Below are positions 1 through 15,773 of a DNA stretch of 35,811 nucleotides, one piece after another. Position 1 is the stretch's first letter. Each line of letters begins with the position of its first letter. Below the pieces are notes generated by a model, which was not told the DNA's origin, searched no databases, and saw only the letters and a program-made list of their open reading frames with translations. Both the position numbers and the translations under genes were made by a program. This DNA comes from a virus, in IMG/VR virus record IMGVR_UViG_3300035459_000030, positions 1 to 35,811 of that record, one strand, 5' to 3'.

Positions 1-136
1 CCCCAATCGCCACGGCCTCCAGGGTGACCAGCATATCAAGGTACTCAGACAGAGACATTTTCTCCCTGGCGGCCGAAACCTTAGCCAGGTCGTGGGTCTT
101 TTTCCAGACCTTCATCGTGACAAATTTCTCACTCAC
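1..136 (-). CDS. Small protein, possible ribbon-helix-helix type, cut by the left edge
   Basis: Only the first 45 codons are present. The chosen start is GTG at 136-134, which overlaps the stop of the upstream TROVE gene and has GGAGG six bases before it; an in-frame ATG at 115-113 is the alternative. The visible protein is short, charged and helical, with a VWKKTHDLAKVSAAREKMSL stretch followed by SEYLDMLV. That pattern (a 'K-W-K-x-T-H' strand, then a helix, then 'S-x-x-E-Y-L-D') resembles small DNA-binding or antitoxin-like ribbon-helix-helix proteins, but this is only a resemblance. The overlap implies translational coupling to the Ro protein gene. Function unknown. Confidence 0.6.
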   Translation of the reverse strand, partial: MSEKFVTMKVWKKTHDLAKVSAAREKMSLSEYLDMLVTLEAVAIG

Positions 137-1469
137 CGGACGCCTCCAGCGGCTGCCCCTCCAGGGCCTCGATGTACGCCAGACAGGCTTCGGACCAGCC
201 GTCAATGTGGATCCAGGCGCCGTAGCCCACCCCGTTCTGGTCAACTGACACGTTGATCATGTAGTGCTTGCGGCCAGCGACGTAAGGCTGGCGCACCCGG
301 TCGTGAGCCTGCTCGTCGGTCAGAACGATCATGCGGTCGTACGTTTCCCGGGCCAGCAAGATGTCGACTGCGCCGCCCAGGTTGGTGCCGCTGTGACCCT
401 GGCTATTTACGATGGCGTCCCGCAGGGCAAAGCCCCGGCGGTCGGGCACCCGTTTCATGGCGTCTGAGAAGCTGTAAACCGCTATATCCTCGCAAAGCTC
501 TCGAGCCAGGATGGCCAGGCCGCAGGCCGCATCCATCCGCATCAGATCGGACTTGGCAGAGATAGAACTGTCCATACTACCAGAGACGTCGACCAGAAGC
601 ACTGTACGCCCGGGCAGCTTCTCGAGGCCGGCCAGGCACTTGAACATGGGAACCTCAATATGCGTCTCCCACTGCGGGGCCGCCTTGGCGGCAGCGATGA
701 AGCGGAAGGGGAGCACCCGCTCGACCTTCATATCCTCCAGGGCATGCAGGATGGTCGGCTCGTCGACCTTGGCCTCGGCCATGTTCCGCAGGTTGCGGAG
801 CAAGGCCAGGGCGCCCAACTTCTGCTCCCGAATCAAGCGCTCCCAGGTCTCTTTCTTGTCGGCGCCGGCAGACAGAGCCACCTCCCAGGTGTCCGGCACC
901 GCCAGCTTGTCCTCGGCCAGCTTTTTGTACAGCTCGACCTGGTATTCGAGTATCGGCCGTGGGTGGGTCATAAACATGACATCCCGCAGCTTGACGGCGC
1001 CGTCCCGGTTGTACTTGGCGAACTGGTATTCGTCGAACCTGGCGAACGAAGCCGCCAGCCCGAGCTTGACTTTCTTGGAGATCGGGCACTTGCCGTCCTT
1101 CCAATAGATAGCCAGGAACTCGGCCAACTCGTCCGGGCGCTGGATAATGCGGGGTAAGAGCGACTCAACTGCGTCCTTGTGGGACGGGATGCGAGCCATC
1201 TCCCTGGCGATCAGAAGCGGCACGTGGCGCAATTTGAAACGAGTGCGGGCATCGAAAGCGATCTCGCAGACCGTCTCGACCGGCACGTGCGGAATCAGCG
1301 AAGCAATGCGGTCAGCGATAGCCACCCCGTTCTCGTAAAAGGTGGACTCCCACAGCAAACAGGCCATCACGGAGCGCCGCAGCTCCTGCTCGGGGGTGAT
1401 ACGCATGGCCCGGCCCCCTTCGTGAGTGGTTGCATGGGTAGCAACCGGTCGTACATTCAGTCTTGCCAT
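129..1469 (-). CDS. rsr: TROVE/vWA domain protein (Ro60 / Rsr homologue)
   Basis: A 446-residue Ro 60 kDa-type RNA-binding protein. Residues about 1-285 are the helical TROVE ring, recognisable from THATTHEGG, RRSVMACLLWES, KLRHVPLLIAREMAR, RPDELAEFLAIYWKDG, GAVKLRDV and LSAGADKKETWERL. Residues about 290-446 are a von Willebrand factor A domain with an intact MIDAS: DVSGSM near residue 295, the GTNLGG threonine, and LTDEQAHD. Ro proteins form a ring that binds misfolded RNA ends in its hole and Y RNA on its outer face, and in bacteria they work with exonucleases in RNA decay. The start is ATG at 1469, with GGAGG five bases upstream; a longer reading from TTG is less likely. The gene lies directly behind the terminator of two Y-RNA-like transcripts, the usual partner arrangement. 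It probably relies on readthrough, since I see no separate promoter. Confidence 0.93.
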   Translation of the reverse strand: MARLNVRPVATHATTHEGGRAMRITPEQELRRSVMACLLWESTFYENGVAIADRIASLIPHVPVETVCEIAFDARTRFKLRHVPLLIAREMARIPSHKDAVESLLPRIIQRPDELAEFLAIYWKDGKCPISKKVKLGLAASFARFDEYQFAKYNRDGAVKLRDVMFMTHPRPILEYQVELYKKLAEDKLAVPDTWEVALSAGADKKETWERLIREQKLGALALLRNLRNMAEAKVDEPTILHALEDMKVERVLPFRFIAAAKAAPQWETHIEVPMFKCLAGLEKLPGRTVLLVDVSGSMDSSISAKSDLMRMDAACGLAILARELCEDIAVYSFSDAMKRVPDRRGFALRDAIVNSQGHSGTNLGGAVDILLARETYDRMIVLTDEQAHDRVRQPYVAGRKHYMINVSVDQNGVGYGAWIHIDGWSEACLAYIEALEGQPLEASGE

Positions 1470-1485
1470 AACAGCCTCCATCAGC

Positions 1486-1513
1486 AAAATAAAAAGCCAG
1501 CAAAATGCTGGCC
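1486..1513 (-). terminator. Intrinsic terminator after the Y RNA unit
   Basis: A perfect 7-bp stem with a 3-base loop (1496-1512) is followed, in the minus direction, by a T-rich tract covering 1486-1495. It closes the RNA unit that starts near 1743 and sits only a few bases before the ribosome site of the TROVE gene. Readthrough or RNA processing here would link Y RNA and Ro expression. Confidence 0.85.
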
Positions 1514-1522
1514 TTTGAAAGA

Positions 1523-1654
1523 TGAGGGGAACAAGCGCTCAGAGTTCTTTTAGGCGCTCTGCCGACTGAGCTATCTCAGCTTTCGCTGAGAGTGGGACTT
1601 GAACCCACGACCACCCGCTCCATAGGCGATGAAACTCTAAACTACACCACCTCA
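1523..1654 (-). ncRNA. yrlA: Y RNA with a tRNA-mimicking domain (YrlA-like)
   Basis: This RNA of about 132 nt folds as a long helix ending in a tRNA-like head. The outer strands are TGAGG (1654-1650) and CCTCA (1527-1523). Next come a GGTGGTGTAGTT strand (1651-1640) and a GCGCTTGTTCCC strand (1538-1527), both shared with the RNA upstream. Then an 8-bp helix pairs TAGAGTTT (1639-1632) with GAACTCTG (1547-1540), with GU pairs at both ends. The head holds a canonical T-arm (1608-1592, loop TTCAAGT), a 7-bp Watson-Crick acceptor-like stem (1591-1585 with 1580-1574) closed by a GAAA tetraloop, and a canonical D-arm (1571-1556). The order T-arm, capped acceptor, D-arm is what is known for bacterial YrlA, which mimics tRNA. 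It is encoded directly before the Ro gene. The assignment is inferred from these signatures and the context; the exact ends are uncertain. Confidence 0.8.
1556..1608 (-). other. tRNA-like domain in permuted order
   Basis: In transcript order: T-arm (5-bp stem, TTCAAGT loop), 7-nt acceptor 3' strand, GAAA loop, 7-nt acceptor 5' strand, TA, D-arm (GCTC/GAGC stem with AGTCGGCA loop). The acceptor end is closed by a tetraloop, so it cannot be aminoacylated. No proper anticodon arm can be built. This fits tRNA mimicry and argues against a working tRNA. Confidence 0.8.
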
Positions 1655-1663
1655 ACATTTTCG

Positions 1664-1743
1664 CAGACCAGGGAACAGGCGCCCAGGGGCTTTTGTTCTT
1701 TTATCAGGAAAGAGAAGTAACCCTGAACTACACCACCGGTCTG
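1664..1743 (-). ncRNA. Second Y-RNA-like hairpin, lacking the tRNA-like domain
   Basis: The first 80 nt of the transcript form a closed unit: 6-bp outer stem CAGACC (1743-1738) with GGTCTG (1669-1664), then GGTGGTGTAGTT (1737-1726) facing GCGCCTGTTCCC (1682-1671), then CAGGG (1725-1721) pairing with CCCTG (1688-1684). The 12-base GGTGGTGTAGTT strand is identical in the YrlA-like RNA and the other strand matches at 11 of 12 bases, while the adjoining helix covaries (CAGGG/CCCTG against TAGAG/CTCTG). The loop region has no T- or D-arm. This suggests a second Ro-binding RNA, comparable to the additional Y RNA (YrlB) near some bacterial rsr genes. It may be cleaved from the downstream RNA or act in tandem with it. 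Confidence 0.65.
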
Positions 1744-1749
1744 AGTGTA

Positions 1750-1778
1750 AATTTACTACATTCCACAACTTTTGTCAA
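1750..1778 (-). promoter_or_regulatory. Sigma70-type promoter of the Y RNA unit
   Basis: Minus-strand TTGACA (1778-1773), a 17-bp spacer and TAAATT (1755-1750). The predicted transcription start falls at about 1743, exactly at the first base of the first RNA hairpin. This gives a discrete transcript of roughly 255 nt ending at the terminator near 1490. The -35 box lies just past the stop codon of the preceding gene. Confidence 0.8.
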
Positions 1779-1781
1779 GGT

Positions 1782-2264
1782 TTATTTAGGCACCACAAAA
1801 AACGCCTGGTGGGTTATAAGCGACCAGGCGATTCCTACCAGAGCAACTACGCCGGCCACTAACAGAGGCGCCACAAAAAAGATCAGAATCGTCTTCCCGA
1901 TATTTTCGTAAGACTTCACCTTGGCGTCGACCGTAGTTTTTATCGATGTTATTTGAGACGCCATATTCCGCATCACTTCATCCATCCCGGGCGTCTTGGG
2001 GTCTTTCGGGTCGCCAAACAGGAAGTTGTACATCACCTGCTGGGTCGAACTGAGTTCAGAGATGTCTTTGCCATGCTGCTTGACAACTGCTACCAGTCCA
2101 ACATCCGGGCACCCTTCAGGACCAAAAACTGTAGTTTTTAGTGAACTGATATCCTTGTAAATTCCCGAATCAACCATATCTTCCGGTTCTCTGTACTGCT
2201 TCTCGGGGGTCTGTTTACGGGCATTCCCCTCGGCCCGGTTTGGACGTTGCGACGGCGGTGGCAT
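1782..2264 (-). CDS. Protein with one C-terminal membrane segment, lysis region
   Basis: A 160-residue protein not recognised as a family. Residues 1-30 are polar and rich in P, R, Q and E; the middle is soluble and helical; residues about 124-148 form one clear hydrophobic span (IGKTILIFFVAPLLVAGVV onward) followed by a short tail. This is a C-tail-anchored topology. The start at 2264 has no good ribosome site but lies 9 bases after the preceding stop, so coupled translation is plausible; an internal ATG at residue 30 is an alternative. Its place after a holin-like gene and an endolysin suggests a lysis accessory protein, but this is inference. Confidence 0.7.
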   Translation of the reverse strand: MPPPSQRPNRAEGNARKQTPEKQYREPEDMVDSGIYKDISSLKTTVFGPEGCPDVGLVAVVKQHGKDISELSSTQQVMYNFLFGDPKDPKTPGMDEVMRNMASQITSIKTTVDAKVKSYENIGKTILIFFVAPLLVAGVVALVGIAWSLITHQAFFVVPK

Positions 2265-2273
2265 GGCGGCGGT

Positions 2274-2645
2274 TTATTGGGCAGTAGGTGGAGTGGGGTC
2301 TAGAGTCCGCCCTAGTGGTTTCGTGGCCGGTTTGGGAGCCGCAGCGACCTTGGGTAGGATGGGGAACACGCCCTGGTTGGCCACAATTCCTGACAGAAGC
2401 ATCCATATCATGGTCTGCGCCCCGGCCAGTGTACAGACAGTGCCCGCCACCCAGCCGATGCAGCCCAGGCCGAAGATGACCAGGACCAGCACCACCAGCG
2501 CCACCAACATCACCAGGCGCTGGCTGTTATCCGGCAGGGCGTTGTACTTGTCGTGAAGGACGGGAGCATACTCAAATATGACTGATACGATCACGGCCAG
2601 TAAGGCGGTGATAGCCGAATAAGTCAGTGTTACGGTAGGTACCAT
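2274..2645 (-). CDS. Holin-like membrane protein
   Basis: A 123-residue protein with three hydrophobic stretches: residues about 7-25, 43-70 and 76-97. A Pro/Ala/Lys-rich soluble tail follows. The second span (VMLVALVVLVLVIFGLG) is strongly hydrophobic. Ribosome site AGAAGGAG lies about 7 bases before ATG. The size, the three spans, the polar C-terminus and the place one gene beyond a GH25 endolysin are typical of phage holins, which make membrane lesions that release the endolysin. No family motif was recognised, so holin is a context-based call. Confidence 0.6.
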   Translation of the reverse strand: MVPTVTLTYSAITALLAVIVSVIFEYAPVLHDKYNALPDNSQRLVMLVALVVLVLVIFGLGCIGWVAGTVCTLAGAQTMIWMLLSGIVANQGVFPILPKVAAAPKPATKPLGRTLDPTPPTAQ

Positions 2646-2646
2646 T

Positions 2647-2835
2647 TCAAGCTCCTTCTCTTAGATGGGTATTCCGGCCAAACCTAATAGCACCAGAATT
2701 GCTACCAGGATAAGCACAATGATCAGAACCGTCCTGAGTCAGGCCAAGCGCGCTGGTATCGGCAGGATGGTTGATCAGGGCATACAGCAAAGAAAACACG
2801 ACCGCGTATACCAGTAATTTTATAATGATGGTCAT
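2647..2835 (-). CDS. Small membrane ORF, possibly frameshifted two-span protein
   Basis: The open frame gives 62 residues with one hydrophobic span (IIKLLVYAVVFSLLYALI) and a polar tail. In the +1 frame, from about 2735 to a TAA at 2661-2663, a second very hydrophobic segment appears (VLIIVLILVAILVLLGLAGI). Two short spans joined by a Pro-containing loop are a common phage small-membrane-protein plan. The original gene was therefore probably a two-span protein of about 58 residues, now split by a frameshift (real or a sequencing error). The ribosome site GGAG precedes ATG at 2835. It lies between endolysin and holin-like genes, so a lysis role is likely but unproven. Confidence 0.5.
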   Translation of the reverse strand: MTIIIKLLVYAVVFSLLYALINHPADTSALGLTQDGSDHCAYPGSNSGAIRFGRNTHLREGA

Positions 2836-2839
2836 TGCT

Positions 2840-3889
2840 TTAGTCTCCTTTCGGGGCCGTAGACGTCCAGCCCAGGAACGACTTAGCTTCAGCCTGAAGC
2901 TGTACGATATTCGCCTCGGCTGTTACCAGGCGGTTGTTCAGCGTCTCGAGCGTGATCTCGGCCGGCGGTACATCGGGCGGAACGACAACTGGGGGAACCT
3001 GGGTGGAGTGTGGCTTGTAAGCGAAGCGCTGGCACATGGTTGGGTAGTCGCCGTGAAACAGGTTCAGGCCGATCTGGTGGCCATGGGTACCGGCCATCCC
3101 GATATAGTTCTCAGCCCACTGCACCATCAGGTAGTCATCCCAGCCCGGCGGCTGCGGTTTGTACGCATCGCCCGGATAGTAGTTGAGCAAGTCCTGCCAG
3201 GTGATGGTGGTGGTCGGCGTGGCCGGGTGAATCCACTGCGCCAGGTGAACCAACTTCTGGTTGGCGGTCACCTGGGGACCAACCCAGTCCCGGACGGCTG
3301 GGTACAAACCAAACCAGCCCGGGGAGCTGTAGAATGCGAGCGGCACCGTGTTGACGTCCGGGTCGTGCAGGAACCACCCGTACAGCGTATTTAAGTAAAT
3401 CTGGGTATTCGTGTTGGTATTGGACTGGTCTTCGCAGTCGAGCTCCAGGCCGTGGAATGAGACGCCGGCCTTCTTATTCTTCAGGGCGTACTTGAAGGCC
3501 AGGTAGCCAATATCCGAGCTGGCGCTCCCCGCCTGGGGAACGTCGAATTTCGGAAAGTGGTAGCCAAAAAACATCAGATCGTTATTGTAGGCCGACTGGC
3601 AGTAATTCGAAAACTGCTGGTCGACGTAGTTCGCCGGGTCGAACGGGTCTCCGGCCACCTGCTGCCAGCCGCTCGAGGCCCGGGCCAGCACCCAGCGCAC
3701 CCCGCTGGCGTACATGGCAGCGAAGTCGCCATCCGTCAGCGGCCCGCAGTAGCTGGAGATATCCACGCCCAGGGCGTAGTTGACGTACTGGCTGACCACC
3801 GCAGCGGCCTCTGCGATCATGGCCACCTGGGGCTGCGCCCCAAACTCCTCCGCAAAAGACTGGCCTAAGAATAGAGGATTCGTATCCAT
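2840..3889 (-). CDS. Endolysin, GH25-type muramidase
   Basis: A 349-residue enzyme predicted to cleave the glycan strand of peptidoglycan at host lysis. The GH25 barrel starts around residue 40 with GVDISSY (Asp43) and carries GLELDCED near 147-154, where Asp151 and Glu153 form the DxE catalytic pair expected for the family. GYHFPKFD and HLAQW-type strands follow. Residues 1-38 precede the barrel with no signal peptide. After a Pro-rich linker around 295-312 (PPVVVPPDVPP) comes a short coiled-coil-like tail of about 35 residues instead of a recognisable wall-binding domain. Start ATG at 3889 has AAAGGAG eight bases upstream. Placed next to holin-like genes. Confidence 0.85.
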   Translation of the reverse strand: MDTNPLFLGQSFAEEFGAQPQVAMIAEAAAVVSQYVNYALGVDISSYCGPLTDGDFAAMYASGVRWVLARASSGWQQVAGDPFDPANYVDQQFSNYCQSAYNNDLMFFGYHFPKFDVPQAGSASSDIGYLAFKYALKNKKAGVSFHGLELDCEDQSNTNTNTQIYLNTLYGWFLHDPDVNTVPLAFYSSPGWFGLYPAVRDWVGPQVTANQKLVHLAQWIHPATPTTTITWQDLLNYYPGDAYKPQPPGWDDYLMVQWAENYIGMAGTHGHQIGLNLFHGDYPTMCQRFAYKPHSTQVPPVVVPPDVPPAEITLETLNNRLVTAEANIVQLQAEAKSFLGWTSTAPKGD

Positions 3890-3904
3890 TGACTTACTCC
3901 TTTA

Positions 3905-4255
3905 TCAGCCGTTGGCTGCCCCGGGCTGGGCGTTGCCGTAGTCCTGGGGTTGAATTCCGAGCAAGTTCTGCAGCTCTGCGATGGCGGCAGAATACCCTGC
4001 AATGCCGTTATTGCATTCCAGGATGGTCTGGTTCAGCTCGTTCTGGAGCTTGTTGACCCGCTCCTGAGACTGCTTGCCGTACGATTCCCGCTCGGCGATC
4101 AGGGCCGCCAGGCGCATCCTGGCCCGCACCTCGAATTCGAGCACCGGGGGCGGCCCCATGGTGGGCGGAGCCACCGGCCCCATATCTTCGTGAACATGGG
4201 GCGCCTGTTCCATTTTCTCAATTGCATCTTTTACTGCATCGGATCCATCAGACAT
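3905..4255 (-). CDS. Hypothetical coiled-coil protein
   Basis: A 116-residue protein with no recognised family. Residues about 25-40 are Pro/Met/Gly rich; residues 42-100 are predicted long helices with coiled-coil character (RMRLAALIAERESYGKQSQE and the following RVNKLQNELNQTI). Strong ribosome site AAAGGAG. It sits between the last tail-fibre gene and the endolysin, a spot often taken by fibre chaperones or lysis accessories, but nothing in the sequence decides this. Confidence 0.65.
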   Translation of the reverse strand: MSDGSDAVKDAIEKMEQAPHVHEDMGPVAPPTMGPPPVLEFEVRARMRLAALIAERESYGKQSQERVNKLQNELNQTILECNNGIAGYSAAIAELQNLLGIQPQDYGNAQPGAANG

Positions 4256-4310
4256 TTGGTACTCTCCTTTTTGTGAACTAAAAGACTAATAAACGTTTGA
4301 TAACAGTATA

Positions 4311-7079
4311 CTACGTCGTGGCGCCCTTGATGACAGCGAACCTGAGTGGCGTGGCCTCGGTGATCGTGGCGCCCGAGATATTGCGGACAGAGATCGTACA
4401 GGAACCGGCCGCTGGCAGCACGCTGAAGGACCAGGCCCCGCCATTCGAGCTGCTGTTATGCTGCACGTCGACAAAGTCGGTGGCAGCGATGACAGAATTT
4501 GTAAAGACAAAAGAGACCACATCGTTGGCGCCCTGCGAGCCGCTGAACATGGTGATCGTCCCGGCGTATTTATTCAGGGTCACGCCCGTCGCCCGGCTGG
4601 TGGCCTGGCCGATAGACCCCCCTGCCCCGGCCACGTAGCCGATGCCACCACCCGATGAAGTGAGCGCCCCAGTGACCGCCAGGGAACTGCCAGACGTGGC
4701 GCCAATGGCCTGCACGACCGTGAACGTACCGGAGCCGCTGAGATACTGGGATGGATTCCCGGACAGGGTTGGTAAAAATCCAGGGGAGCCGGAAGTAGCC
4801 AGGTTGTGCAGGGCGCCCCCGACCTGGGCACCATGGGCATGTACGTGGTTGCCATGTGAGGCGGAGCCGCTCGAGCCGACCGCCGCCGTGCCGATGGGCT
4901 GAGGCGTAGCCGGATCCAAAACCAGGCCGCCACCAGCCCCAGGCGCCGCACCAGTCCAGGTACTTGACCCGCTGTTATAAGTCAGGACGTGCCCGTTGGT
5001 CGTATCGGACAGGTCGACCTTCTTGCCCCCCAGGTAAAAACTCGTACTGCCCGGGGAGAACTGGGCAAAGTTATTCGAATCGACGCCCACAAGCTGTACG
5101 CTGGCGTTATTGGCAGCATTGGCGCCGGCTATATACTGGGCGTTTGGTAGGTTCATCCATTGGTCAAACTGGGTCGAGACGCCAAAGAATGAGCGGCCGT
5201 CGTACTGAATCTCGAAATTAGTGGCCTTGATCTGCATCGCATGGTAAGTCTTACCCGTCGAGCCGGCCGTGGCAGAATCGATATAGCCGGTCGACCCGCC
5301 GGAATCGTAGTACATATGCAGGCCGGACACCCCGCCCATGTAATTCTCGTCGCCCGTCCCTGTCGCAATAAATCGACCCTCCAGCCTGGCGTAGGCTCCG
5401 GCCGCTGAAGTGACTCCAAAAATGAAGTTGTTGGTGGATGAGTTGAGAGCGAAGCCCCAGAAGTACTGGTAGGGCATTTGATACAGAATAGCCGCATTAT
5501 AGGTATTGACCAGATCGGAATGCTGGTAGTTGCCAAAGACCATGGTGTAGTCGTCGTAAGCCGCCAGGATCGGGTCGTTGTACGTATTGCGAACCTTGAA
5601 GGCCAGGGCGCCCGTCCAGGCTGAATCGATCTTGACGTCCAGGAAGGCCGGGGCGTCGTGCTCGTTGGCGCCCGAATCGTTGACGTCGTAATTGATGATA
5701 AATTTATGATTCCCCAGGAGCTTCATGGCGAAGTCGCCGTTGTTGACGTACCAGGTGAAAGCCCCGTTGGTGGTCTGGACGTCCGTGGCGAAGTTGCCCG
5801 CCAGCACCGAATAAGGCCGTACACCATCGTTATCCGGAAGCTGAGACAGGAAGCTGAAGGCGCTGGCCGCCCACATGCCCAGGGACACCGGCCCCTCGTT
5901 CACCGCCTGCAGCCGCAGCGTGGTATCCCAGGTACTGGTCCCGCCATATTCGCTGGTGCCAGTCGTGACCACTTCGAGTGGCTCGGAAGGCGCTGAAGGG
6001 GAACCCTGGCGGTCGATCCGCAGACCATAAGACCCCTGGTCGAACTGGAACTGCGCCCTGCCATTGATTGAGGATGCCCCGCTATAGACCGTGACGTAGT
6101 TATTCGCTCCGCCCGATACTGCTCCACTGAAGGGCCGCCAGGCCGGAGAGCCTGAGAACACCTGTAGGGCGTAGCCGCTCGCACCCAGCGGCAGGCGTGT
6201 GGGCGTACCGCCGGCCCCAGCCCAGATCAGGTCACCCAGCGTGGTCATGGGGTTGGTCATGCCGCCCCCGCCACCACCGCTCCCGCTGCCGCCCTGGGCC
6301 AGGAACGTACGCCCGTCCACAAAGTCGGTGTAGTCCTTATCTTCGTGCGTGAACGTCATGCCGCCCCACAGCCTGACAGCCCCGATCATGATATTCCCAG
6401 TCGGGATAACCGGGTATTGGGACAGGGCCGGCGTGAAACCGGCGGCCACGGAGCCAGCCGTGAACTGCACCGTGGCGGCGGATCCGCTGATGGCGTACGA
6501 GGCCGCCACCATGCAGGATGAGCCTGAACCCGGAATGTAGGACGTCAGGTCGAATACCTGGTAGGGGATGTTGATCCAATTCCCGGCGAAGTAAATCAGG
6601 TCGGGCAGCACGGCCACGGCCGCAGAGCCGGAAGCGCCGGAGCCGCTGTAGTACGTGGCGGCAGTCAGCCGGCTCTGGGTGATCATGCGCTTATCCACCC
6701 AGACCGTATCTCCGCCATAAAGCGTGTGGGTAGAGGCGTGTGGCGGCACATTCATGTTGAACGTAGGGGTCGGAGCGCCGGTACCGGCGTATATATCCTG
6801 CTGGATCGTCCCCCCACTCAGAATCTGCAGCGTCGACGGCTCGTGCGGGTCGAAACCCACTACCACCGGCATGCCGTACTTCACCACAATACGCTTATTG
6901 AGCACTGAGACGGGCGGCATGTCGGCGGTCGAAACCCACACGTGGCCAGGGTTCGAGGGGTCGGTCAAGGTGCCGTCCGGCTTGCCTACGTAAGCAATGA
7001 CCCCTTTGGTATGCAAATCGACCTGGAACCTGGCCAGCCTCTGGTTTAGTTTAGCCCGCAGCGAATCCATCGTGCTCAT
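4311..7079 (-). CDS. Tail fibre / receptor-binding-type protein
   Basis: A 922-residue virion protein. The start is ATG at 7079 (MSTMDSLRAKL), overlapping the preceding stop as ATGA; an 84-residue longer open frame lies inside the upstream gene and is rejected. The N-terminal 110 residues look like a baseplate-attachment domain. At about 265-290 a Gly-rich linker leads into NPMTTLGDLIW and PTRLPLG, a motif common in phage fibres. A long beta-rich region follows. Around 715-750 is a TPQPIGTAAVGSSG segment with SHGNHVHAHG, resembling the repeat hinge of other fibres. No chaperone or autoprotease domain was recognised at the C-terminus. It probably contacts the host surface alongside the DGR-diversified protein. 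Confidence 0.75.
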   Translation of the reverse strand: MSTMDSLRAKLNQRLARFQVDLHTKGVIAYVGKPDGTLTDPSNPGHVWVSTADMPPVSVLNKRIVVKYGMPVVVGFDPHEPSTLQILSGGTIQQDIYAGTGAPTPTFNMNVPPHASTHTLYGGDTVWVDKRMITQSRLTAATYYSGSGASGSAAVAVLPDLIYFAGNWINIPYQVFDLTSYIPGSGSSCMVAASYAISGSAATVQFTAGSVAAGFTPALSQYPVIPTGNIMIGAVRLWGGMTFTHEDKDYTDFVDGRTFLAQGGSGSGGGGGGMTNPMTTLGDLIWAGAGGTPTRLPLGASGYALQVFSGSPAWRPFSGAVSGGANNYVTVYSGASSINGRAQFQFDQGSYGLRIDRQGSPSAPSEPLEVVTTGTSEYGGTSTWDTTLRLQAVNEGPVSLGMWAASAFSFLSQLPDNDGVRPYSVLAGNFATDVQTTNGAFTWYVNNGDFAMKLLGNHKFIINYDVNDSGANEHDAPAFLDVKIDSAWTGALAFKVRNTYNDPILAAYDDYTMVFGNYQHSDLVNTYNAAILYQMPYQYFWGFALNSSTNNFIFGVTSAAGAYARLEGRFIATGTGDENYMGGVSGLHMYYDSGGSTGYIDSATAGSTGKTYHAMQIKATNFEIQYDGRSFFGVSTQFDQWMNLPNAQYIAGANAANNASVQLVGVDSNNFAQFSPGSTSFYLGGKKVDLSDTTNGHVLTYNSGSSTWTGAAPGAGGGLVLDPATPQPIGTAAVGSSGSASHGNHVHAHGAQVGGALHNLATSGSPGFLPTLSGNPSQYLSGSGTFTVVQAIGATSGSSLAVTGALTSSGGGIGYVAGAGGSIGQATSRATGVTLNKYAGTITMFSGSQGANDVVSFVFTNSVIAATDFVDVQHNSSSNGGAWSFSVLPAAGSCTISVRNISGATITEATPLRFAVIKGATT

Positions 7080-10000
7080 AAGTCGGTGTACCTGCACCAG
7101 TTCAGAATGCTCATCTGCGCCAATTGTACCCGGGTGCTTAGGGTTCCCGAGAGGACCTTGCTGGCGATGCCAATTTTCCAGCTCTGGCCGTACGAGACGC
7201 TCGCCCAGGCATAACCCCAGTTGAGCGGCGGGTAGATAGACGCCACGCTGAAGGCGGAATTCTGGGAGTTGAAGTACCCCCGCAGGTTGTAGCCGTCGGT
7301 CGTGTCGACGTGGTCGAAGAACGCCGTCCAATAAGCCGCACCGTAAAGGCTTAGACTGAAGCCCGAATCATAGACCACGGCTCCGTCTGAATAATTGATC
7401 AGTCGGCCAAACGAGCCATAAACCCCGTTGCCGATATGCGGCAGGGGCCAGTCGACAGAGGCGTACACCCCCCAGCTCTGGGTGTGATAGGTGTGCTGCC
7501 CATCCCCGAAATAATACTGGTCGTTCGGGCCGCCGGTGGTCTCGATATAATACTCCGCCACGGATCCGCCAATCGGGCCGCAGTACGGCGCCATGTTGAC
7601 GCCGCCGGTGCTCCCGGAATTATTATAGTTACCCGTCCACTGGTTCTGATTCGAGCCGGCGTAGTAATACAGCGGAGAGCCAGATGCGACAATCGGACTG
7701 CCGCTGGGCGCATAAGTATAAGATGTTCCCCCACTTATTGCTGTGATCAGGAACCCGTACACCTCAACCATGCTCCCGGAAGTAAAAATAAACGGGCGGA
7801 CGCCCGAGACTGTGCCGTCGTAGTAAGCTGCAGACCCGGCCGCCACCGCTGTGATGATCGGGCTGCCAGAGATGTTGCAGCCCTGCACGGTCACGCCGTA
7901 CATATTCCCGGTGGGCACCCAGTCAGCGACGCCCGGAGAAGCCGATGTGGTGGTGTAGGTGCTCTCGTAAAGGTTGATAATAGTTGGGTAGACGGCGCTC
8001 GAAGGCCTGATCTTGCCGTGCCAGGGCAAGTACACGGAAACTGCGCCGCCCCCGATAGTCTGAATCGTCTTATTGATCGGTATCGTGACAGCCTGGGTAG
8101 TCTTCAGCCCCAGAGAGCACGGAGCACCAGGAAACCAGGGCGGCGTGTTGCCAGGCCCGATGGAATTGACTGGCGGCGTGGGGGTAGAGGGCGGCAGGGG
8201 CGTATCGTCGCCCGAGTAAAACGGCAGCCAATAACCGTCAATTGGAATGGTATTGCCTTCAGCCGTAACATCCGCCAGAAGCACGCCGCTCTTACTATCC
8301 CAGGTGTAATTCACCTGATTCGGGACCATATACTGAGACTGCATCGTGAAGCCCCGGGGGTTGTCGGCTGCCGCAATTGAAAGCGAAAAGAACTGGTTGG
8401 GAGCGATATCGATAAAACGGTTGTTGGCGGCCAGGGGCACGGTCACGCTTGGAAGTGGGTTGTTGGCGGACGCCAGCAAAAGTCCCGCCAGTTTATTTGT
8501 ACCGCTCTGCTGTCCAAACAGGGCGCCGTAACTGCCAGAAGTATTGGCGCTGACATACAGCTCGGTGGTATTCTGCATGGCGCCAAAGCGACCGGCCGCC
8601 GTACCCCAGGCGCCCGCCCTATATCCGTTGGGGGTAGTCCCGTCCCAGGTCATGGCAGTCGTGTCCTGGTAGCTAACCTGCTGCACCGTCTGGCGCTGAA
8701 TCTCAACCGTATCCCGCCAGTCTAGCTTCGCCACCTCCATCACGACCGGAATGCTTGTTCGTAAAAACGAGAGCACAAACTTGGTCGGCGGCATAAAATA
8801 AACCTTGCCATAGCGGTCGGAGTAAGGCTGAATCAGGCGCCGGCTCTGGCCAACCTGGGTGATCTGCCCCCAGACCGTGCCCCAGGGCGCCGTACTGCCC
8901 ACCATACGAACGGTGTCGCCGGATGGGTAGCAGTCCATGATCTCGCTGGCCGTCGAGCGCCAGCGAATGACGTGCCAGTAAAAGGCGTCCACGTTGAAGT
9001 TTTTGTACTGATTCCAGTTCGTCGGGTTCGTGGTCACGTCGATGATACCCGCCGGCCAGGACATGATCATATTGAGCCAGTAAGCCGGCCCGTCCACCGT
9101 AAACTGAACTGTGGACTGCTCCGGGTTGTACTCGATGGTTTGGCCGTCAATCCACCCCACAGCGATCAGATTCTCGTAACCAGGATACGGCCCCAGGTTG
9201 GCTGGCGACCCGCCATAATAGTCCTGGGTGCCCAGGAACACCTTGGCTCTATCGACGATGGCCGGTAGGGCAGCTTGGGCGTACATGGTGACCTGGAAGG
9301 ACCAGCCACCTGAATCGACGTCGCCCCGACACTCGTCGAGTGTGAGCATGGTCAAAAGCGGGTTGGCGTCGTTGTAAACAGCGACCACCCGGTGGCCGGT
9401 TGTGTAGCGGCTGGCGGTTGTGCCAACCGTACACGACACATCATACACGCCAGGCAAAGTGAAAGTGATAGTCGGATTGGCCACGGATCCGGAAGTAAAA
9501 GTCGCCCCCGACCCCGAGCACGCCCAGAGCCAGGTACTGACCGTGTCGCCGCTCCCTCCGACCGGAACCCAGGAAGGGGAAGCGTCCAGGGCCAGGGACA
9601 CAGAACCCCCCTGCAGGTAGAGCAAGGCGTCCGGCCCCATGATGGGTATCGGGTTCAGATAATAATGCTGGTCGGTATACGCCTGGTCATTGTCGATCAG
9701 CATATTCCCGGTGTTGATATCCAGAATGGACGTCTTGGGAAACAGACCGTACTCGTTGACAATGGTGATATAGGCATTGGTCTGCCACTGCACCTCGCTA
9801 GTCAGTCCGATCTTCAGCGTGCCCACGGCCCCGCTCGAGCCGCCCATGAAGCTGATGGAGATCAGGCGGAACGTGCCCAGGTCGTAAGCCCCCGGCGTAC
9901 TGCCCAGCCAGCCCGTCTGGTTGTAGGCCATGATCGCCCCGGCGGAGCCAGCGATAACATTGTAGAACTGAATCGAACCGACGTTGTCGTTGGATGCGGG

Positions 10001-10120
10001 CGCCGCCAGAACCTGGGCCTGTAGCACGACGGGCGGAGAGACTATGTACAGGCCCAGCTTCGAAAACTGCTGAACCTGACGCAATAAACTCTGCTCTGGG
10101 GCGGTGATGGGCCTGGTCAT
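7076..10120 (-). CDS. Large tail tip / baseplate protein with PKD-like domain
   Basis: A 1014-residue structural protein. Residues about 175-245 look like a PKD/Ig domain (VSTWLWACSGSG, then TFTLPGVYDVSCTVG). Residues about 250-620 resemble a phage tail-hub type region with many aromatic residues but no motif I can name. The C-terminal half is rich in Tyr, Gly and Ser and probably beta-structured (YYAGSNQNQW, GVYGSFGRLINYSDG). The start ATG at 10120 overlaps the previous stop (ATGA), and the stop overlaps the next start in the same way. Position two genes after the tape measure, before the fibre, suggests the distal tail tip or baseplate. Confidence 0.7.
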   Translation of the reverse strand: MTRPITAPEQSLLRQVQQFSKLGLYIVSPPVVLQAQVLAAPASNDNVGSIQFYNVIAGSAGAIMAYNQTGWLGSTPGAYDLGTFRLISISFMGGSSGAVGTLKIGLTSEVQWQTNAYITIVNEYGLFPKTSILDINTGNMLIDNDQAYTDQHYYLNPIPIMGPDALLYLQGGSVSLALDASPSWVPVGGSGDTVSTWLWACSGSGATFTSGSVANPTITFTLPGVYDVSCTVGTTASRYTTGHRVVAVYNDANPLLTMLTLDECRGDVDSGGWSFQVTMYAQAALPAIVDRAKVFLGTQDYYGGSPANLGPYPGYENLIAVGWIDGQTIEYNPEQSTVQFTVDGPAYWLNMIMSWPAGIIDVTTNPTNWNQYKNFNVDAFYWHVIRWRSTASEIMDCYPSGDTVRMVGSTAPWGTVWGQITQVGQSRRLIQPYSDRYGKVYFMPPTKFVLSFLRTSIPVVMEVAKLDWRDTVEIQRQTVQQVSYQDTTAMTWDGTTPNGYRAGAWGTAAGRFGAMQNTTELYVSANTSGSYGALFGQQSGTNKLAGLLLASANNPLPSVTVPLAANNRFIDIAPNQFFSLSIAAADNPRGFTMQSQYMVPNQVNYTWDSKSGVLLADVTAEGNTIPIDGYWLPFYSGDDTPLPPSTPTPPVNSIGPGNTPPWFPGAPCSLGLKTTQAVTIPINKTIQTIGGGAVSVYLPWHGKIRPSSAVYPTIINLYESTYTTTSASPGVADWVPTGNMYGVTVQGCNISGSPIITAVAAGSAAYYDGTVSGVRPFIFTSGSMVEVYGFLITAISGGTSYTYAPSGSPIVASGSPLYYYAGSNQNQWTGNYNNSGSTGGVNMAPYCGPIGGSVAEYYIETTGGPNDQYYFGDGQHTYHTQSWGVYASVDWPLPHIGNGVYGSFGRLINYSDGAVVYDSGFSLSLYGAAYWTAFFDHVDTTDGYNLRGYFNSQNSAFSVASIYPPLNWGYAWASVSYGQSWKIGIASKVLSGTLSTRVQLAQMSILNWCRYTDL

Positions 10121-10923
10121 GTGGTCGTCATCCGCTGGAAAGCGATGGTGAAATTAGTACGGCGGTGGGCATCGTGAACTTCTGTATCGATGGGCCAGAC
10201 CGCCACCACGTGCAGGGGCACGTACTGCTCGGCGTTGTCCATGATTCTGGTGTTCACCCACACCTCGGCAGACTGGCCAGGCACGAAGCCCCGCAGCCAG
10301 TCACGCTGGATGGCAGAGATGATCACCCAATCCCAGGTTCCCACGGCCCAGCCCATGCCCATCACCAGGCCGGCGCCGTTTACGATCTGCTTAGAATAAG
10401 GCTTGTACGTGAAGTGCGGAGCGGCCCAGGTGGTCGTATCGCCCGTCTGCTCCAGGAAACTCATGGCGGTCGGGTTGTAAAAGGCGCTCGAGCCACCCAC
10501 CGTGATCGAACCCGACACAGAAGCTGTCCCGGAGATCGTACCGGATCCCGTTATATACCCGGCCCCGCAGGTGGCAGAGCCGGAGATAACCCCGGAGCCG
10601 GCCGCTCCAAAAGAGCCGGAATAGGTCGCCGTGCCGTAAAACAGGCCGCTGCCAGCGACCGCCTGGGGACCAGTCATGTTCATCGAACCGGAGACGGTGG
10701 GGGAGCCAGAGATGGTACCGGAACCGTAGATACTGACAGAGCCGGCCAGGATACCAGAACCCGAGATGGGGGAGCCGCTGGCAAAGCCGGAGCCAGAGAT
10801 AACGCAGGAACCGGAGAGCGTGCCATAGCCACTGACAGAGCCGGAGCCGTACACCAGGAACGAACCGGATGCGATCGCCGGGTAAGCCCCGATCATAAAG
10901 AGCGTCTGCGGAATGTAGGCCAT
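10117..10923 (-). CDS. Distal tail-type protein with Gly-Ser repeat insertion
   Basis: A 268-residue protein directly after the tape measure, where distal tail proteins usually lie. Residues about 18-150 are a low-complexity tract of degenerate GSGxISGSxxxSGS units (for example GSGTISGSPTVSGS). Residues 155-268 are an ordinary folded domain with several Trp residues (TWAAPHFTYKP, GTWDWVIISAIQRDWLRGF, LHVVAVWP). The repeat tract could form a solvent-exposed beta-roll or flexible stalk; this is inference. Ribosome site GAGGAG precedes ATG at 10923. ATGA overlap with the next gene. Confidence 0.65.
   Translation of the reverse strand: MAYIPQTLFMIGAYPAIASGSFLVYGSGSVSGYGTLSGSCVISGSGFASGSPISGSGILAGSVSIYGSGTISGSPTVSGSMNMTGPQAVAGSGLFYGTATYSGSFGAAGSGVISGSATCGAGYITGSGTISGTASVSGSITVGGSSAFYNPTAMSFLEQTGDTTTWAAPHFTYKPYSKQIVNGAGLVMGMGWAVGTWDWVIISAIQRDWLRGFVPGQSAEVWVNTRIMDNAEQYVPLHVVAVWPIDTEVHDAHRRTNFTIAFQRMTTT
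10490..10870 (-). repeat. Degenerate GSG/SGS coding repeats
   Basis: The DNA contains many short imperfect repeats around 'ggagccggagata' and 'accggatcccg', coding for Gly-Ser-Gly units of about 6-8 residues. The unit length varies, so it is an expanded low-complexity tract, not a strict tandem array. Confidence 0.7.
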
Positions 10924-10926
10924 CGG

Positions 10927-13104
10927 CTATCTCCTCGGGAGCAACTTGATGAACATCTCGACCGCCTCCCGGTTGGCAGCGTTGCGAGTTTCAGCGGACG
11001 TGTCGGCAGCGAATTGAGGCTGGTACACCAGCGTGCCGCCGTTTGAGCCGCCGCCCAGCATGGCCTCCAGCACGTTCTGCTGGGAGAGCGAAGTCCCGAC
11101 CACCTTCTCGGCGGCCGACGTGGCAGGCTGGGTGAGCACGAACTCGCCGGAATGGACATAAGCCATACCCGGAGCGGTATAACCACCCTCCTGGTACGAG
11201 CCAGGCATGTTGGGGCCGCCAGGGTTGGAGGATGAATAACCCGATGCGGCCTGGTTCTTTAGATTTTGAATGGTCTTTTCCATCGCATCCAACTGAGAAG
11301 TAAGCCCGTTGACCGCAGTCGTGCCCATTTCGTGAATCAGATAGTCGATCTTGCCGGCCTCGTCGTCGATGGTAGGCAGAATCTGGCTGGTAAAATCCTG
11401 GCGAGAACGGGCATTCTGCAGCTTGTATTGGTAGTCCATTTCATTCAACTGAATCTGGAATTGCTGCTTCGCCCGGGACTGGGAGATATCGAAGTCCTGC
11501 TGGTTGTACTGAATCTGCAGCTTCTGCATCTTATCCCGGTAAGCCTTCTCGATGTTATAAGACTGCTGGTTATCCTGAAGCTGGAGCTGGTGGCTCTGGT
11601 CAGCCCGGTTTACCTGAATCGTATGGTCCTGGGCGGCCCGCTGGGTGGAGATGTTGTACTGGCGCTGTGCCAGATAATACTGCATGGCGTCGCCGGTCAA
11701 GGCGATCTGGAATAAGTCGAACTTGTGATCCTCGGCGTTGCGGGTAACAGAGAGCTGGTAGTCCTCCTCGGACTGCTTCATCTGGATATTGAAGTCCCGA
11801 TTCGAGATCGCCCGCTGACGGTAAAATTCTTTCTCGGTCATGGCCTCCGACATCTGGAACTGTTCGGCGGCCCGGGAAACCTGCTTCTGGTAGTCCTGGG
11901 TGGCGTACAACTGGGACAGGTTGAACTGGTTGGTATCCAGAAGGGCGGTGTGCTGGTAGTCCTCCTGGGCACGAGACATCTGCAGCAAAAATTGACGGTA
12001 AGCCTCAAGCTGTTGAGATGAAGCCGGGTATTGCTGGGTGACCTGAGCCGGAGCCGATACCGTCTTGACGGCGTTCTGGATGGCAGTAACGATATTTTGA
12101 GGCGCATTGATAACGGCGGAAGCGGTCTGGTTGGTCTGGTTGGCCCGGGCCTTGGATACATCCTCCGGAGCGCCAAACAGCTTATTCAACTCATAGTCGG
12201 CCACGGTGGCGACCTGGTTCATTGGCGCAAAGCCGATTCCCAGCTTCTTGGCAAACTGGCTCTGGTTAAATTTAGAATTAGCCAAAGCCTGGTCAACCAA
12301 CCCACCCAGCACCAGCCCACCCCCTACAGAAGCCAGGATGCCGGCCAGGGTGACCCCACCGGCCCCAGCCACAACCGCCGTACCCTCGGCAGTCTCGGCA
12401 GCCGGCGCAACCGCCTCAGCGGCAGGAACACCGCCTACCGGCACGACCGGGGCCTCTGGCGCAGCCACCGGCTCCACCGGCGCCTCCGGCGTCGCGGAAG
12501 GTTCGGACGTCGGCGTAACAGGCGCCGTACCGCCCTTGGGGAAGGCCCCGATCACCTTCTGCAGGGTCTTGACGCCCATGATGCCACTGCCAACGGCACC
12601 CACTGCAGCCAGGACCCCGGCGCCCTGGGCAGCGTACTGCACCACGGCCGGATGGGCCTCCACGAAGGACGCAGCCTTAGAGGACAGGTCGGCGGCCTTC
12701 TGCATATACGGCAGCAAGACACCGGTGGCGACCTTGCCCATACGGTTGTACGAGTCCTCGAGCTGGGTCTGGGCCGCCATCCAGTTGCGACTGAGCTGGG
12801 TGGAGCTGTTCATGGTAGCGACGTAGGACTTGGCCGCAGAGCTGATAGCGGTGAAGATCGTGGCGGCCGTACCGGTCACCCCCAGGGACACGGCAGTCTT
12901 CAGGATGCTATCGGTGATCGTTTTTAGGCTGCTGGCCTCACGAACACTATCCTGAAGGTTCTTGTGGTACAGGGTCGACTGCTTGGCCGCCCCCTCGGTG
13001 TTTTTATTGATGTCGCCCAGGGACTTGGCAGCGTCCTTGGCGCCTTTGTCGTCAAATTTTGAAACAAACAGGATATCAAGCTCTTTGGAAGCGTCTGCCG
13101 TCAT
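10927..13104 (-). CDS. Tape measure protein
   Basis: A 725-residue protein placed straight after the tail-chaperone frameshift pair, the standard location. The N-terminus (ELDILFVSKFDDKGAKDAAKS) is helical. Residues about 50-300 hold several hydrophobic stretches (LGVTGTAATIFTAISSAA, GAGVLAAVGAVGSGI, LAGILASVGGGLVLGGLV) separated by an Ala/Pro/Glu linker. Residues about 370-590 are a Gln-rich heptad-like coiled coil with recurring NISTQRAAQDH / QVNRADQSH / DISQSRAKQQ units. The protein sets tail length; at roughly 0.15 nm per residue this gives about 0.1 micrometre. It carries no peptidase or lysozyme motif that I recognise. Start ATG at 13104 with GAAGG upstream. Confidence 0.88.
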   Translation of the reverse strand: MTADASKELDILFVSKFDDKGAKDAAKSLGDINKNTEGAAKQSTLYHKNLQDSVREASSLKTITDSILKTAVSLGVTGTAATIFTAISSAAKSYVATMNSSTQLSRNWMAAQTQLEDSYNRMGKVATGVLLPYMQKAADLSSKAASFVEAHPAVVQYAAQGAGVLAAVGAVGSGIMGVKTLQKVIGAFPKGGTAPVTPTSEPSATPEAPVEPVAAPEAPVVPVGGVPAAEAVAPAAETAEGTAVVAGAGGVTLAGILASVGGGLVLGGLVDQALANSKFNQSQFAKKLGIGFAPMNQVATVADYELNKLFGAPEDVSKARANQTNQTASAVINAPQNIVTAIQNAVKTVSAPAQVTQQYPASSQQLEAYRQFLLQMSRAQEDYQHTALLDTNQFNLSQLYATQDYQKQVSRAAEQFQMSEAMTEKEFYRQRAISNRDFNIQMKQSEEDYQLSVTRNAEDHKFDLFQIALTGDAMQYYLAQRQYNISTQRAAQDHTIQVNRADQSHQLQLQDNQQSYNIEKAYRDKMQKLQIQYNQQDFDISQSRAKQQFQIQLNEMDYQYKLQNARSRQDFTSQILPTIDDEAGKIDYLIHEMGTTAVNGLTSQLDAMEKTIQNLKNQAASGYSSSNPGGPNMPGSYQEGGYTAPGMAYVHSGEFVLTQPATSAAEKVVGTSLSQQNVLEAMLGGGSNGGTLVYQPQFAADTSAETRNAANREAVEMFIKLLPRR

Positions 13105-13105
13105 A

Positions 13106-13731
13106 TTAGGATGCCTTCGTACGCCGCAGGGCGGCTTTTAGTCGAAAGATGTTCTCCATCAGCACCTCATCCTGATCCTGCAGACCACCGGCAGCCGGAA
13201 GGTGTTTCCAATCACACGCCTCGAGCTGTACAAAGAATTTCCAGGCTTCTTCCTGGTCGGCATCGTCTCCGACCAGGACCGGAATCAGCGGCGTGCTCGC
13301 TATCTCATCGTCGGTGGGGACGTGGAGATAACGGCGGAATTTTTGCGTGAGGTCGGCCTGCCTTTTTTTATTTGGTCGGCCGCCACCCCCGGTTCGACTA
13401 TCCGACTCCACTGGGGGTTGATCTCGTACACCGCTGCGGACCAGGCATCCACGTCGACCTCGTCCAGGTCACAAAACTTCTCGAACGTGATCGGCCAGGG
13501 CATTCCCTGGCAGTCGGTGACGGCACACACGCAGTCTGGGTAGGTAATGATCCGCAGGATCCGCTCGGCCTGCGTACCGGTGCCCTCTGCCAGCTCCTTA
13601 TTATTCTGTTCCACGCCCTGGCTTCCCAGAATAAAACGGTTTACGCCCATTCGGGCGGTAGCCCTGCTGATGGTCAGGACCACCGCCCGTCCATCCACTT
13701 CAAAATTGAGTGTCTTGCGTTTCTCAGTCAT
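13106..13731 (-). CDS. Tail assembly chaperone, frameshifted form (gpGT-like)
   Basis: Predicted product of a -1 ribosomal frameshift joining residues 1 to about 122 of the short chaperone to the second frame ending at 13106, about 207 residues in all. The second frame (13411 to 13106) reads RQADLTQKFRRYLHVP, WKFFVQLEACDWKHLP and ENIFRLKAALRRTKAS. It has no good start of its own. Upstream frame codons begin at positions divisible by three and the downstream frame is one base upstream of that, which is exactly -1. In siphoviruses the long form carries the tape-measure-binding part. Confidence 0.75.
13300..13731 (-). CDS. Tail assembly chaperone, short form (gpG-like)
   Basis: A 143-residue acidic protein between the tail-tube and tape-measure genes. 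It begins MTEKRKTLNFEVDGR and contains a Cys/Asp-rich middle (YPDCVCAVTDCQG). Its role is known for the family by position: a chaperone that coats the tape measure during tail assembly. The ribosome site GAGG lies four bases before ATG. Its 3' part overlaps a second open frame by 112 bases, and the overlap contains a slippery heptamer, so this is the unshifted product. Confidence 0.78.
   Translation of the reverse strand: MTEKRKTLNFEVDGRAVVLTISRATARMGVNRFILGSQGVEQNNKELAEGTGTQAERILRIITYPDCVCAVTDCQGMPWPITFEKFCDLDEVDVDAWSAAVYEINPQWSRIVEPGVAADQIKKGRPTSRKNSAVISTSPPTMR
13363..13369 (-). other. Slippery heptamer A AAA AAA for -1 frameshifting
   Basis: Seven consecutive A residues on the coding strand, read ATA AAA AAA GGC in the zero frame and AAA AAA AGG CAG after slipping. 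It lies in the overlap of the two chaperone frames and is the only canonical slippery site seen there. Confidence 0.8.
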
Positions 13732-13741
13732 TGAACCTCAA

Positions 13742-14659
13742 CTAACCTTCGTAGAATACGGTAATTACATGACCCAGCACCGGCGCCACAGCGAATGAGA
13801 CGCCATTGGTGAAGGTTTGGATACCGCTTGACTTCAGCGTGTTATTGTCCCAGACTGCGATCTTGGTGGCAGTCTTGGCCGGCTGGGCGCTGTCGAACGG
13901 GAAGGCCAGAGTGGAACCATCCCCCAGGAAGGTGACCATGGTCGGCTTGCCGTACCCGTTGCCCCGGATCATCTGGGAACGGGTGACGCCTTCTACTGCA
14001 GTTGTATACTGCACCTGCCAGGGGTAAGCGGTCACAATCATGGGCACGAATGAGTACAGCCTGACGTTGTCGTCGGCGCTATAACCGCTCTCCCGCATAA
14101 AGACTGTCGCCTTCGGGATGATTCTGAAATCAAACAAAGCGGAGCCAAAGTTTACAGAATCAGGGTCGGCGTCCAGAGCGGCAGAGTAAGCGATGGCAGC
14201 GAGCTGGCCTTCAAAGCCACGCAGGTTGGTGGCCTCGTGAAACAGGTTGGCTTCCTCTACAGTGACCAGTTTGGCACCCCCAGAGGCCATGGCGTCGACA
14301 ATATCGTTGGTCTTATCGATCTGCAGCTCGCCCGACATGACCTCGGTCGCCGGCAGAACCTGTACAGCGAACGGGCCATCGTCCCCGACGTGGGTGATGA
14401 TACGAGGGGTCGGGTCGTTGATGGTCAAGACTTTGGCGCCGGACTGCCAGGCGCCGTAGTACCCGATGGAGCCGGAGACGGTTGCGCCGGCAGCGATGGC
14501 ACTGCCAGCCGAACCGGACAGGGCCGAACCGGATGAGATCAGGTAGGGGGTTGTCGTGCGTCTCGTAACGGTTCCAATCGGGTAAAAGCTGGTGTTCAGC
14601 TCGTAGAGCACAATCGAACGGAAACCAGCGGTAGTACGAATGGTAGTAGGTGCAGGCAT
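13742..14659 (-). CDS. Major tail tube protein
   Basis: A 305-residue protein in the position of the tail tube subunit, between connectors and tail chaperones. It has a strong ribosome site (AAGGAG) fitting a highly expressed structural gene. Its N-terminal 70 residues include a Ser/Gly/Ala-rich stretch (SGSALSGSAGSAIAAGATVS) similar in flavour to other virion proteins here. The remainder alternates beta-strand-like segments (ALFDFRIIPKATVFMRESG, VPMIVTAYPWQVQYTT). The C-terminus (NGVSFAVAPVLGHVITVFYE) may be a small Ig-like appendage. The assignment rests on gene order and expression signals, not a diagnostic motif. Confidence 0.65.
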   Translation of the reverse strand: MPAPTTIRTTAGFRSIVLYELNTSFYPIGTVTRRTTTPYLISSGSALSGSAGSAIAAGATVSGSIGYYGAWQSGAKVLTINDPTPRIITHVGDDGPFAVQVLPATEVMSGELQIDKTNDIVDAMASGGAKLVTVEEANLFHEATNLRGFEGQLAAIAYSAALDADPDSVNFGSALFDFRIIPKATVFMRESGYSADDNVRLYSFVPMIVTAYPWQVQYTTAVEGVTRSQMIRGNGYGKPTMVTFLGDGSTLAFPFDSAQPAKTATKIAVWDNNTLKSSGIQTFTNGVSFAVAPVLGHVITVFYEG

Positions 14660-14669
14660 TTTTTACTCC

Positions 14670-15772: not shown

Positions 15773-15773
15773 A

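What the first reader, a model, noticed from the sequence alone, without database searches (positions are those of the whole stretch)
1556..1608. tRNA mimic with permuted T-arm, capped acceptor stem and D-arm
The 7-bp acceptor-like stem is fully Watson-Crick and closed by GAAA, with canonical T- and D-arms on either side in reversed order. A phage-made tRNA mimic could attract host tRNA-modifying enzymes or nucleases and so tune Ro function.
Basis: partly seen in the sequence, partly recalled or inferred. Interest (0 to 1): 0.7.

Follow-up and report, generated by a model that had tools for sequence, protein, structure and literature searches.

The report
Phage Y RNA mimicking a tRNA
A phage carries, just in front of its Ro60-like gene, a small RNA whose end copies the shape of a tRNA with its parts in rotated order; this is a new example of a known family (YrlA Y RNAs), and comparing about 150 relatives suggests the copy also includes the tRNA's anticodon stem and, in some members, a closed anticodon-like loop.

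Summary
On the minus strand, 1608-1556 reads T-arm, 7-bp GAAA-capped acceptor stem, UA, D-arm; chance gives none. It is the effector module of a YrlA-type bacterial Y RNA, transcribed towards a Ro60/Rsr (TROVE) gene at 1487-129. Rfam YrlA matches exactly this stretch, though below its gathering score. The gene unit has a promoter-like site, an upstream Y-like RNA without the tRNA part, the YrlA RNA and a terminator. The same module precedes Ro, on the same strand, in about half of 100 viral and three quarters of 60 bacterial Ro loci searched with a covariance model. tRNA-like Y RNAs, also in phages, are published; so it is a new member of a known kind. New here, and not checkable against the primary papers: the mimicry extends to a complete anticodon stem in tRNA register (nt 27-28/42-43), so the RNA is a circularly permuted tRNA opened either in the anticodon loop or, in a subclass that includes the window, between nt 28 and 29, keeping a closed CUNNUAA-like loop. 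Function in phages is inferred, not shown.

The parts
129..1487 (-). Ro60/Rsr-type protein, 452 aa (TROVE plus vWA domains)
   Evidence: Pfam TROVE 56.6 bits; PHROG 850 150 bits; profile of 13 homologues (mostly phage) matches solved Ro60 and D. radiodurans Rsr
1750..1778 (-). promoter-like site TTGACA-17-TAAATT for the RNA genes
   Evidence: 10 of 12 consensus matches; 0.2 sites expected in the region; consensus match only
1664..1743 (-). upstream Y-like RNA: same Ro-stem motif (GGUGGUGUAG ... CGCCUGUUCCC) without a tRNA-like module
   Evidence: fold and motif-pair scan
1523..1654 (-). YrlA-type Y RNA: Ro-binding-type stem (GAGGUGGUGUAG...CGCUUGUUCCCCUC) enclosing the tRNA-like module
   Evidence: MFE -53.3, z -3.0
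1616..1628 (-). anticodon-loop-like hairpin CGC CUAUGGA GCG (tRNA nt 29-41)
   Evidence: by homology with 50 relatives; in the window alone a competing hairpin AUCGCCU/GGGUGGU is preferred
1614..1615 (-). tRNA nt 42-43, pairing with 1553-1554 (nt 28, 27): outer anticodon stem
   Evidence: G-C, G-C here; 97% paired with changes on both sides across 50 relatives
1609..1613 (-). 5-nt variable region UGGUC (consensus AGGUC; C48 opposite G15)
1592..1608 (-). T-arm
1574..1591 (-). acceptor-like 7-bp stem capped by GAAA
1556..1571 (-). D-arm
1553..1555 (-). nt 26 (G) and nt 27-28 (CC), 5' half of the outer anticodon stem
1492..1516 (-). intrinsic terminator between the YrlA RNA and the Ro ORF
   Evidence: 11-bp stem, loop 3, T tail; z -3.9

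Best explanation
The feature is the effector module of a YrlA-type Y RNA made by a tailed phage together with its own Ro60/Rsr protein. The paired ends of the RNA form the Ro-binding stem, while the central module folds like a tRNA whose chain is circularly permuted: the acceptor stem is closed by a tetraloop and the chain is opened on the anticodon side, where the Ro stem is attached. Ro would bind the stem and the tRNA-shaped module would recruit or occupy a tRNA-recognising partner (PNPase, tRNA-modifying enzymes, or a tRNA-cutting nuclease), so that Ro is steered to particular RNAs during infection. A second, upstream Y-like RNA with the same Ro stem but no tRNA module would compete for Ro and gate it. 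Shown here: sequence, fold, gene order, family match, conservation and covariation. Inferred from published YrlA and Rsr work: Ro binding, modification, partner recruitment. Speculative: which partner matters for the phage. The confidence given is for the identity as a Ro-linked YrlA-type Y RNA; for recruitment of a tRNA-recognising partner as its function in the phage I would give about 0.5.
For: Rfam YrlA RF02553 aligns model positions 23-87 to 1616-1550(-), E 7.8e-6 in a 361-base search, 1.9e-7 for the record. Ro gene immediately downstream on the same strand. Model R2 of the T/acceptor/D module: 109 matches in 100 viral and 114 in 60 bacterial Ro loci, every one on the Ro strand; about 48 and 46 loci at 40 bits or more, some of them in the training set; modules end a median 248 nt before the Ro match. 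Covariation on 42 sequences: 99.2% of cells paired, score 0.735 against 0.185 shuffled and at most 0.17 slid. tRNA tertiary nucleotides U8, A14, G15, G18, G19, A21, C48, G53, U54, U55, C56, A58, C61 all present. Promoter-like site and terminator bracket the two RNAs. Published: YrlA has D, T and acceptor-like arms, is modified by DusA and TruB, tethers Rsr (PMC8394870); phages carry YrlA (PMC7765460).
Against: The Rfam score, 33.9 bits, is below the family's gathering score of 69; so are those of other phage and bacterial Ro-linked RNAs tested (31-56 bits), which suggests the model is narrow. No expression or binding data. About half of the viral Ro loci gave no strong module, and some modules lie in virus records with no detected TROVE protein, although one of those sits beside a divergent vWA protein.
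Confidence: 0.9

Rival explanations
1. A normal tRNA-His(ATG) gene at 1657-1583(-), as ARAGORN reports; the D-arm-like sequence downstream is incidental.
For: ARAGORN call; acceptor UGUUGAG/CUCAGCG has 7 of 7 pairs, two of them G-U.
Against: Those pairs have probability 0 in the RNA; forcing them costs about 19 kcal/mol; the 75-mer folds little better than shuffles (z -1.0); no D-arm consensus, no encoded CCA, an ATG anticodon that tRNA-His does not normally use (own knowledge); Rfam tRNA not reached. ARAGORN also calls tRNA-Ser(GCT), Thr(TGT) and Lys(TTT) on relatives at the same place, which shows a systematic mis-call.
Confidence: 0.03
2. A circularly permuted tRNA gene that is processed into a working tRNA, as known from some algae and archaea (PMC3978253).
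For: All tRNA arms are present in permuted order; class A relatives even have a closed anticodon-like loop.
Against: The acceptor is closed by a stable tetraloop rather than a processable leader; the window loop CUAUGGA would give the anticodon AUG; the module is embedded in a conserved Ro stem and linked to Ro on the same strand.
Confidence: 0.03
3. A decoy for host anticodon nucleases or other tRNA-directed defence: the phage occupies such enzymes with an uncleavable tRNA-shaped RNA. This is a function hypothesis within the YrlA identity, not an alternative to it.
For: Class A RNAs keep an anticodon-like loop (U33 in 23 of 25, U36A37A38 in 21 of 25 phage sequences). Hughes et al. suggested YrlA as a competitive inhibitor of an anticodon nuclease (PMC7790460).
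Against: The same RNAs occur in bacteria; no nuclease or assay; the window loop lacks U36A37.
Confidence: 0.15
4. A cis-acting leader that regulates Ro translation rather than a free Y RNA.
For: It lies 66 nt upstream of the Ro start.
Against: An intrinsic terminator separates it from Ro and the distance to Ro varies widely among relatives (quartiles 144 and 616 nt).
Confidence: 0.05

Closest known systems
YrlA (Rfam RF02553), bacterial Y RNA, S. Typhimurium structure 6CU1
   Same: T-arm, capped acceptor, D-arm in this permuted order; linked to a Ro60/Rsr gene; stem formed by the RNA's ends
   Different: Scores below the Rfam gathering cut-off; Rfam's model has a continuous open stem where the window and its class A relatives have a split stem plus closed 7-nt loop; sits in a phage
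YrlB and other Y RNAs without a tRNA module
   Same: The upstream RNA 1743-1664 has the Ro-stem motif and no tRNA-like module
   Different: Not tested for homology with YrlB beyond architecture
Circularly permuted tRNA genes
   Same: tRNA arms in rotated order
   Different: Acceptor capped, embedded in a Ro-binding stem, not expected to give a tRNA
tmRNA tRNA-like domain
   Same: tRNA mimic with T-arm and D-like loop
   Different: No tag reading frame, no free acceptor end; only 10.9 bits

Membership tests
YrlA-type bacterial Y RNA | tRNA-like module with permuted T, capped acceptor and D arms | tested here: met
YrlA-type bacterial Y RNA | encoded next to a Ro60/Rsr orthologue | tested here: met
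YrlA-type bacterial Y RNA | 5' and 3' ends form a Ro-binding stem | tested here: inconclusive
   stem present and its motif shared by the upstream RNA and relatives; Ro binding itself not testable here
YrlA-type bacterial Y RNA | Rfam RF02553 gathering score (69 bits) | tested here: not met
   33.9 bits; other Ro-linked RNAs also below it, so treated as a limit of the model, not as a defining biological feature
YrlA-type bacterial Y RNA | pseudouridine in the T-loop and dihydrouridine in the D-loop | not testable with these tools
   U55 present; nt 20 is C
Ro60/Rsr | TROVE domain plus vWA domain with MIDAS DxSxS | tested here: met
   D300, S302, S304 invariant in A1
canonical tRNA | cloverleaf with acceptor formed by the two ends, in the order D, anticodon, T | tested here: not met

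The most novel reading that the evidence does not exclude
YrlA RNAs are complete circular permutations of tRNA including a 5-bp anticodon stem in exact register (nt 26 unpaired, 27-31/39-43, 5-nt variable region), with two alternative opening points. In one subclass, which includes the window's RNA, the opening lies between nt 28 and 29, leaving a closed 7-nt anticodon-like loop, usually CUNNUAA with the U33 and U36A37A38 of ANN-decoding tRNAs; such RNAs could be bound, modified (for example t6A37) or cut by anticodon-loop enzymes.
Probability: 0.4. Interest if true: 0.55.

Novelty: new member of a known kind. Interest (0 to 1): 0.37.

Why it matters
It adds a phage example of the tRNA-mimicking Y RNAs, shows that Rfam's cut-off misses many phage and bacterial members while tRNA finders mis-call some of them as tRNAs, and gives a testable structural rule. 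If the anticodon stem and loop are real, these RNAs become candidate substrates or decoys for anticodon-loop enzymes, which would connect phage Ro RNPs to tRNA-targeting defence.

Tried and rejected
Normal tRNA-His reading: rejected on energy and arms. A contiguous 5-bp anticodon hairpin (27-31 with 39-43, all 5' of the T-arm): its inner three pairs covary, but its outer two hardly do (UG, UA and many mismatches); replaced by the split stem using nt 27-28 3' of the D-arm. Nearest-neighbour folding does not favour this split stem in most sequences (median probability near 0; for the window 0.44 as an isolated domain, about 0.06 for the inner hairpin in the full RNA); support is from covariation. 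Orphan modules without Ro: several virus records had no TROVE or PHROG 850 match near the module, but one has a divergent vWA protein at the expected place, so orphan status is unproven. Primary YrlA papers (Chen 2014, Wang 2018, Sim reviews) were not in the library. No phage relative by megablast of window 1-20000.

Full report
What is there. The window is a 35,811-base virus record of IMG/VR, a tailed phage by its terminase, portal and tail genes. The finding lies on the minus strand. Reading 5' to 3': T-arm 1608-1592, 7-bp acceptor-like stem with GAAA cap 1591-1574, UA, D-arm 1571-1556, exactly the coordinates given. Folded alone the 53 nt form only these helices (z -4.1, 73% of the ensemble). 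Neither a strict nor a sequence-free version of the motif occurred in random sequences of the same composition.

Surroundings. About 70 nt downstream of the module on the same strand begins a 452-aa Ro60/Rsr-type protein (TROVE plus vWA), whose family profile matches solved Ro60 and Deinococcus Rsr. Upstream lies a second hairpin RNA (1743-1664) that shares the outer stem motif GGUGGUGUAG...CGCYUGUUCCC but has no tRNA module. A TTGACA-17-TAAATT promoter-like site at 1778-1750 and an intrinsic terminator at 1516-1492 bracket the two RNAs. This is the layout of a Y RNA gene pair ahead of its Ro partner.

What it is. Rfam's YrlA model aligns to 1616-1550(-) with 33.9 bits (E 7.8e-6), under its cut-off of 69. 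Ro-linked modules from other phages and bacteria score 31-56 bits, so the model is narrow. Using Ro as a handle, viral and bacterial Ro loci were fetched, plus 13 named phage regions. A covariance model of the T/acceptor/D module gave 109 matches in 100 viral and 114 in 60 bacterial Ro loci, all on the Ro strand; about 48 and 46 loci reach 40 bits (part of these trained the model, and a few matches are ordinary tRNAs, left out of the 48). The helices covary strongly: 99.2% of cells paired, covariation 0.735 against 0.185 shuffled.

The roughly 20 nt before the T-arm and the 3-6 nt after the D-arm also follow tRNA rules. (i) Among 87 non-redundant modules, a hairpin with 7-nt loop ending 5 nt before the T-stem is present in 25%, against 0-11% for all other loop sizes and offsets tried; its inner three pairs form in 22 of 87 against a shuffle mean of 4.6 and a maximum of 11 in 2000. 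In a set picked only by loop letters U33, R37, A38 it is 15 of 29 against 2.9, maximum 8. (ii) The two nt 5' of the 5-nt variable region pair with the second and third nt after the D-arm, that is 42-43 with 27-28 with nt 26 left out, in 20 of 22 hairpin-bearing modules (shuffle mean 6.3, maximum 14) and in 52 of 65 of the others (13.0, maximum 23), with a peak only at that offset. In 20 of the 65 others all five pairs 27-31/39-43 form (1.4, maximum 7). (iii) On the 50-sequence alignment A4 the outer pair helix, which played no part in choosing the sequences, is 97% paired, with A-U, G-C, C-G and U-A types. The natural reading is a complete anticodon stem and hence a circularly permuted tRNA, opened in the anticodon loop (class B, as in Rfam's YrlA) or between nt 28 and 29 with the loop closed (class A). 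The conserved tertiary nucleotides of tRNA are present, including G15-C48 (44 of 50).

Cautions on the extension. Secondary-structure energies do not favour the split stem in most members, and in the window a competing hairpin AUCGCCU/GGGUGGU wins in the full RNA. The window's loop CUAUGGA keeps C32, U33 and A38 but not U36A37. So the anticodon-like loop is supported for the family by covariation and for the window by homology only. The inner helix percentages are inflated by selection; the unselected tests are those. Sequences are related, so shuffles overstate significance. Whether the primary YrlA papers already describe this could not be checked; a review names only D, T and acceptor similarity (PMC8394870).

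Known context. YrlA RNAs are modified by DusA and TruB, and Y RNA tethers Rsr to PNPase (PMC8394870). Phages have been said to carry YrlA (PMC7765460), and jumbo phages carry TROVE proteins, which in cells work with a tRNA-like partner (PMC7824862). A competitive inhibitor role against an anticodon nuclease has been suggested (PMC7790460). From memory, and not read here, Chen et al. 2014 reported Y RNAs near Ro60 in more than 250 bacterial and phage genomes. Hence the object is a new member of a known kind.

Mechanism. Shown: an RNA gene pair with the Ro-stem motif in front of Ro, and a conserved, covarying tRNA-like module. Inferred from YrlA and Rsr work: the stem binds Ro, the module binds a tRNA-recognising protein, and the pair of RNAs with and without the module offers Ro two alternative partners. 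Not known: the partner in this phage.

Practical by-product. tRNA finders mis-call class A RNAs: tRNA-His(ATG) here, and annotated tRNA-Thr in Xanthomonas phage 10KY502B and tRNA-Ser in Brevundimonas phage Gurke overlap permuted modules just upstream of Ro.

Noticed in passing
window 30710-33406 (-): A diversity-generating retroelement: reverse transcriptase 30710-31744, RT-18 RNA 31750-31825, template repeat 31864-31974 and variable repeat 32062-32172 in the end of a tail protein gene; 18 of 19 differences fall on template adenines.
   Followed up: yes
L151 2322-2389 (OQ622092 20624-20691) and L158 2329-2403 (ON529850 157691-157765): Deposited tRNA-Thr and tRNA-Ser annotations overlap YrlA modules upstream of Ro; they look like mis-annotated Y RNAs.
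   Followed up: partly
L077 2069-3532 (-) with module 3736-3787 (-): A permuted module sits just upstream of a vWA protein that no TROVE model detects: possibly a very divergent Ro.
   Followed up: partly
L034, L042, L060, L074, L107: Strong permuted modules in virus records (fragments) without a detected Ro protein near them.
   Followed up: partly
L131, L151, L155, L158, L167, L190 and many Bradyrhizobium loci: Two tRNA-like Y RNAs in tandem before Ro, often one with and one without the closed anticodon-like loop.
   Followed up: partly
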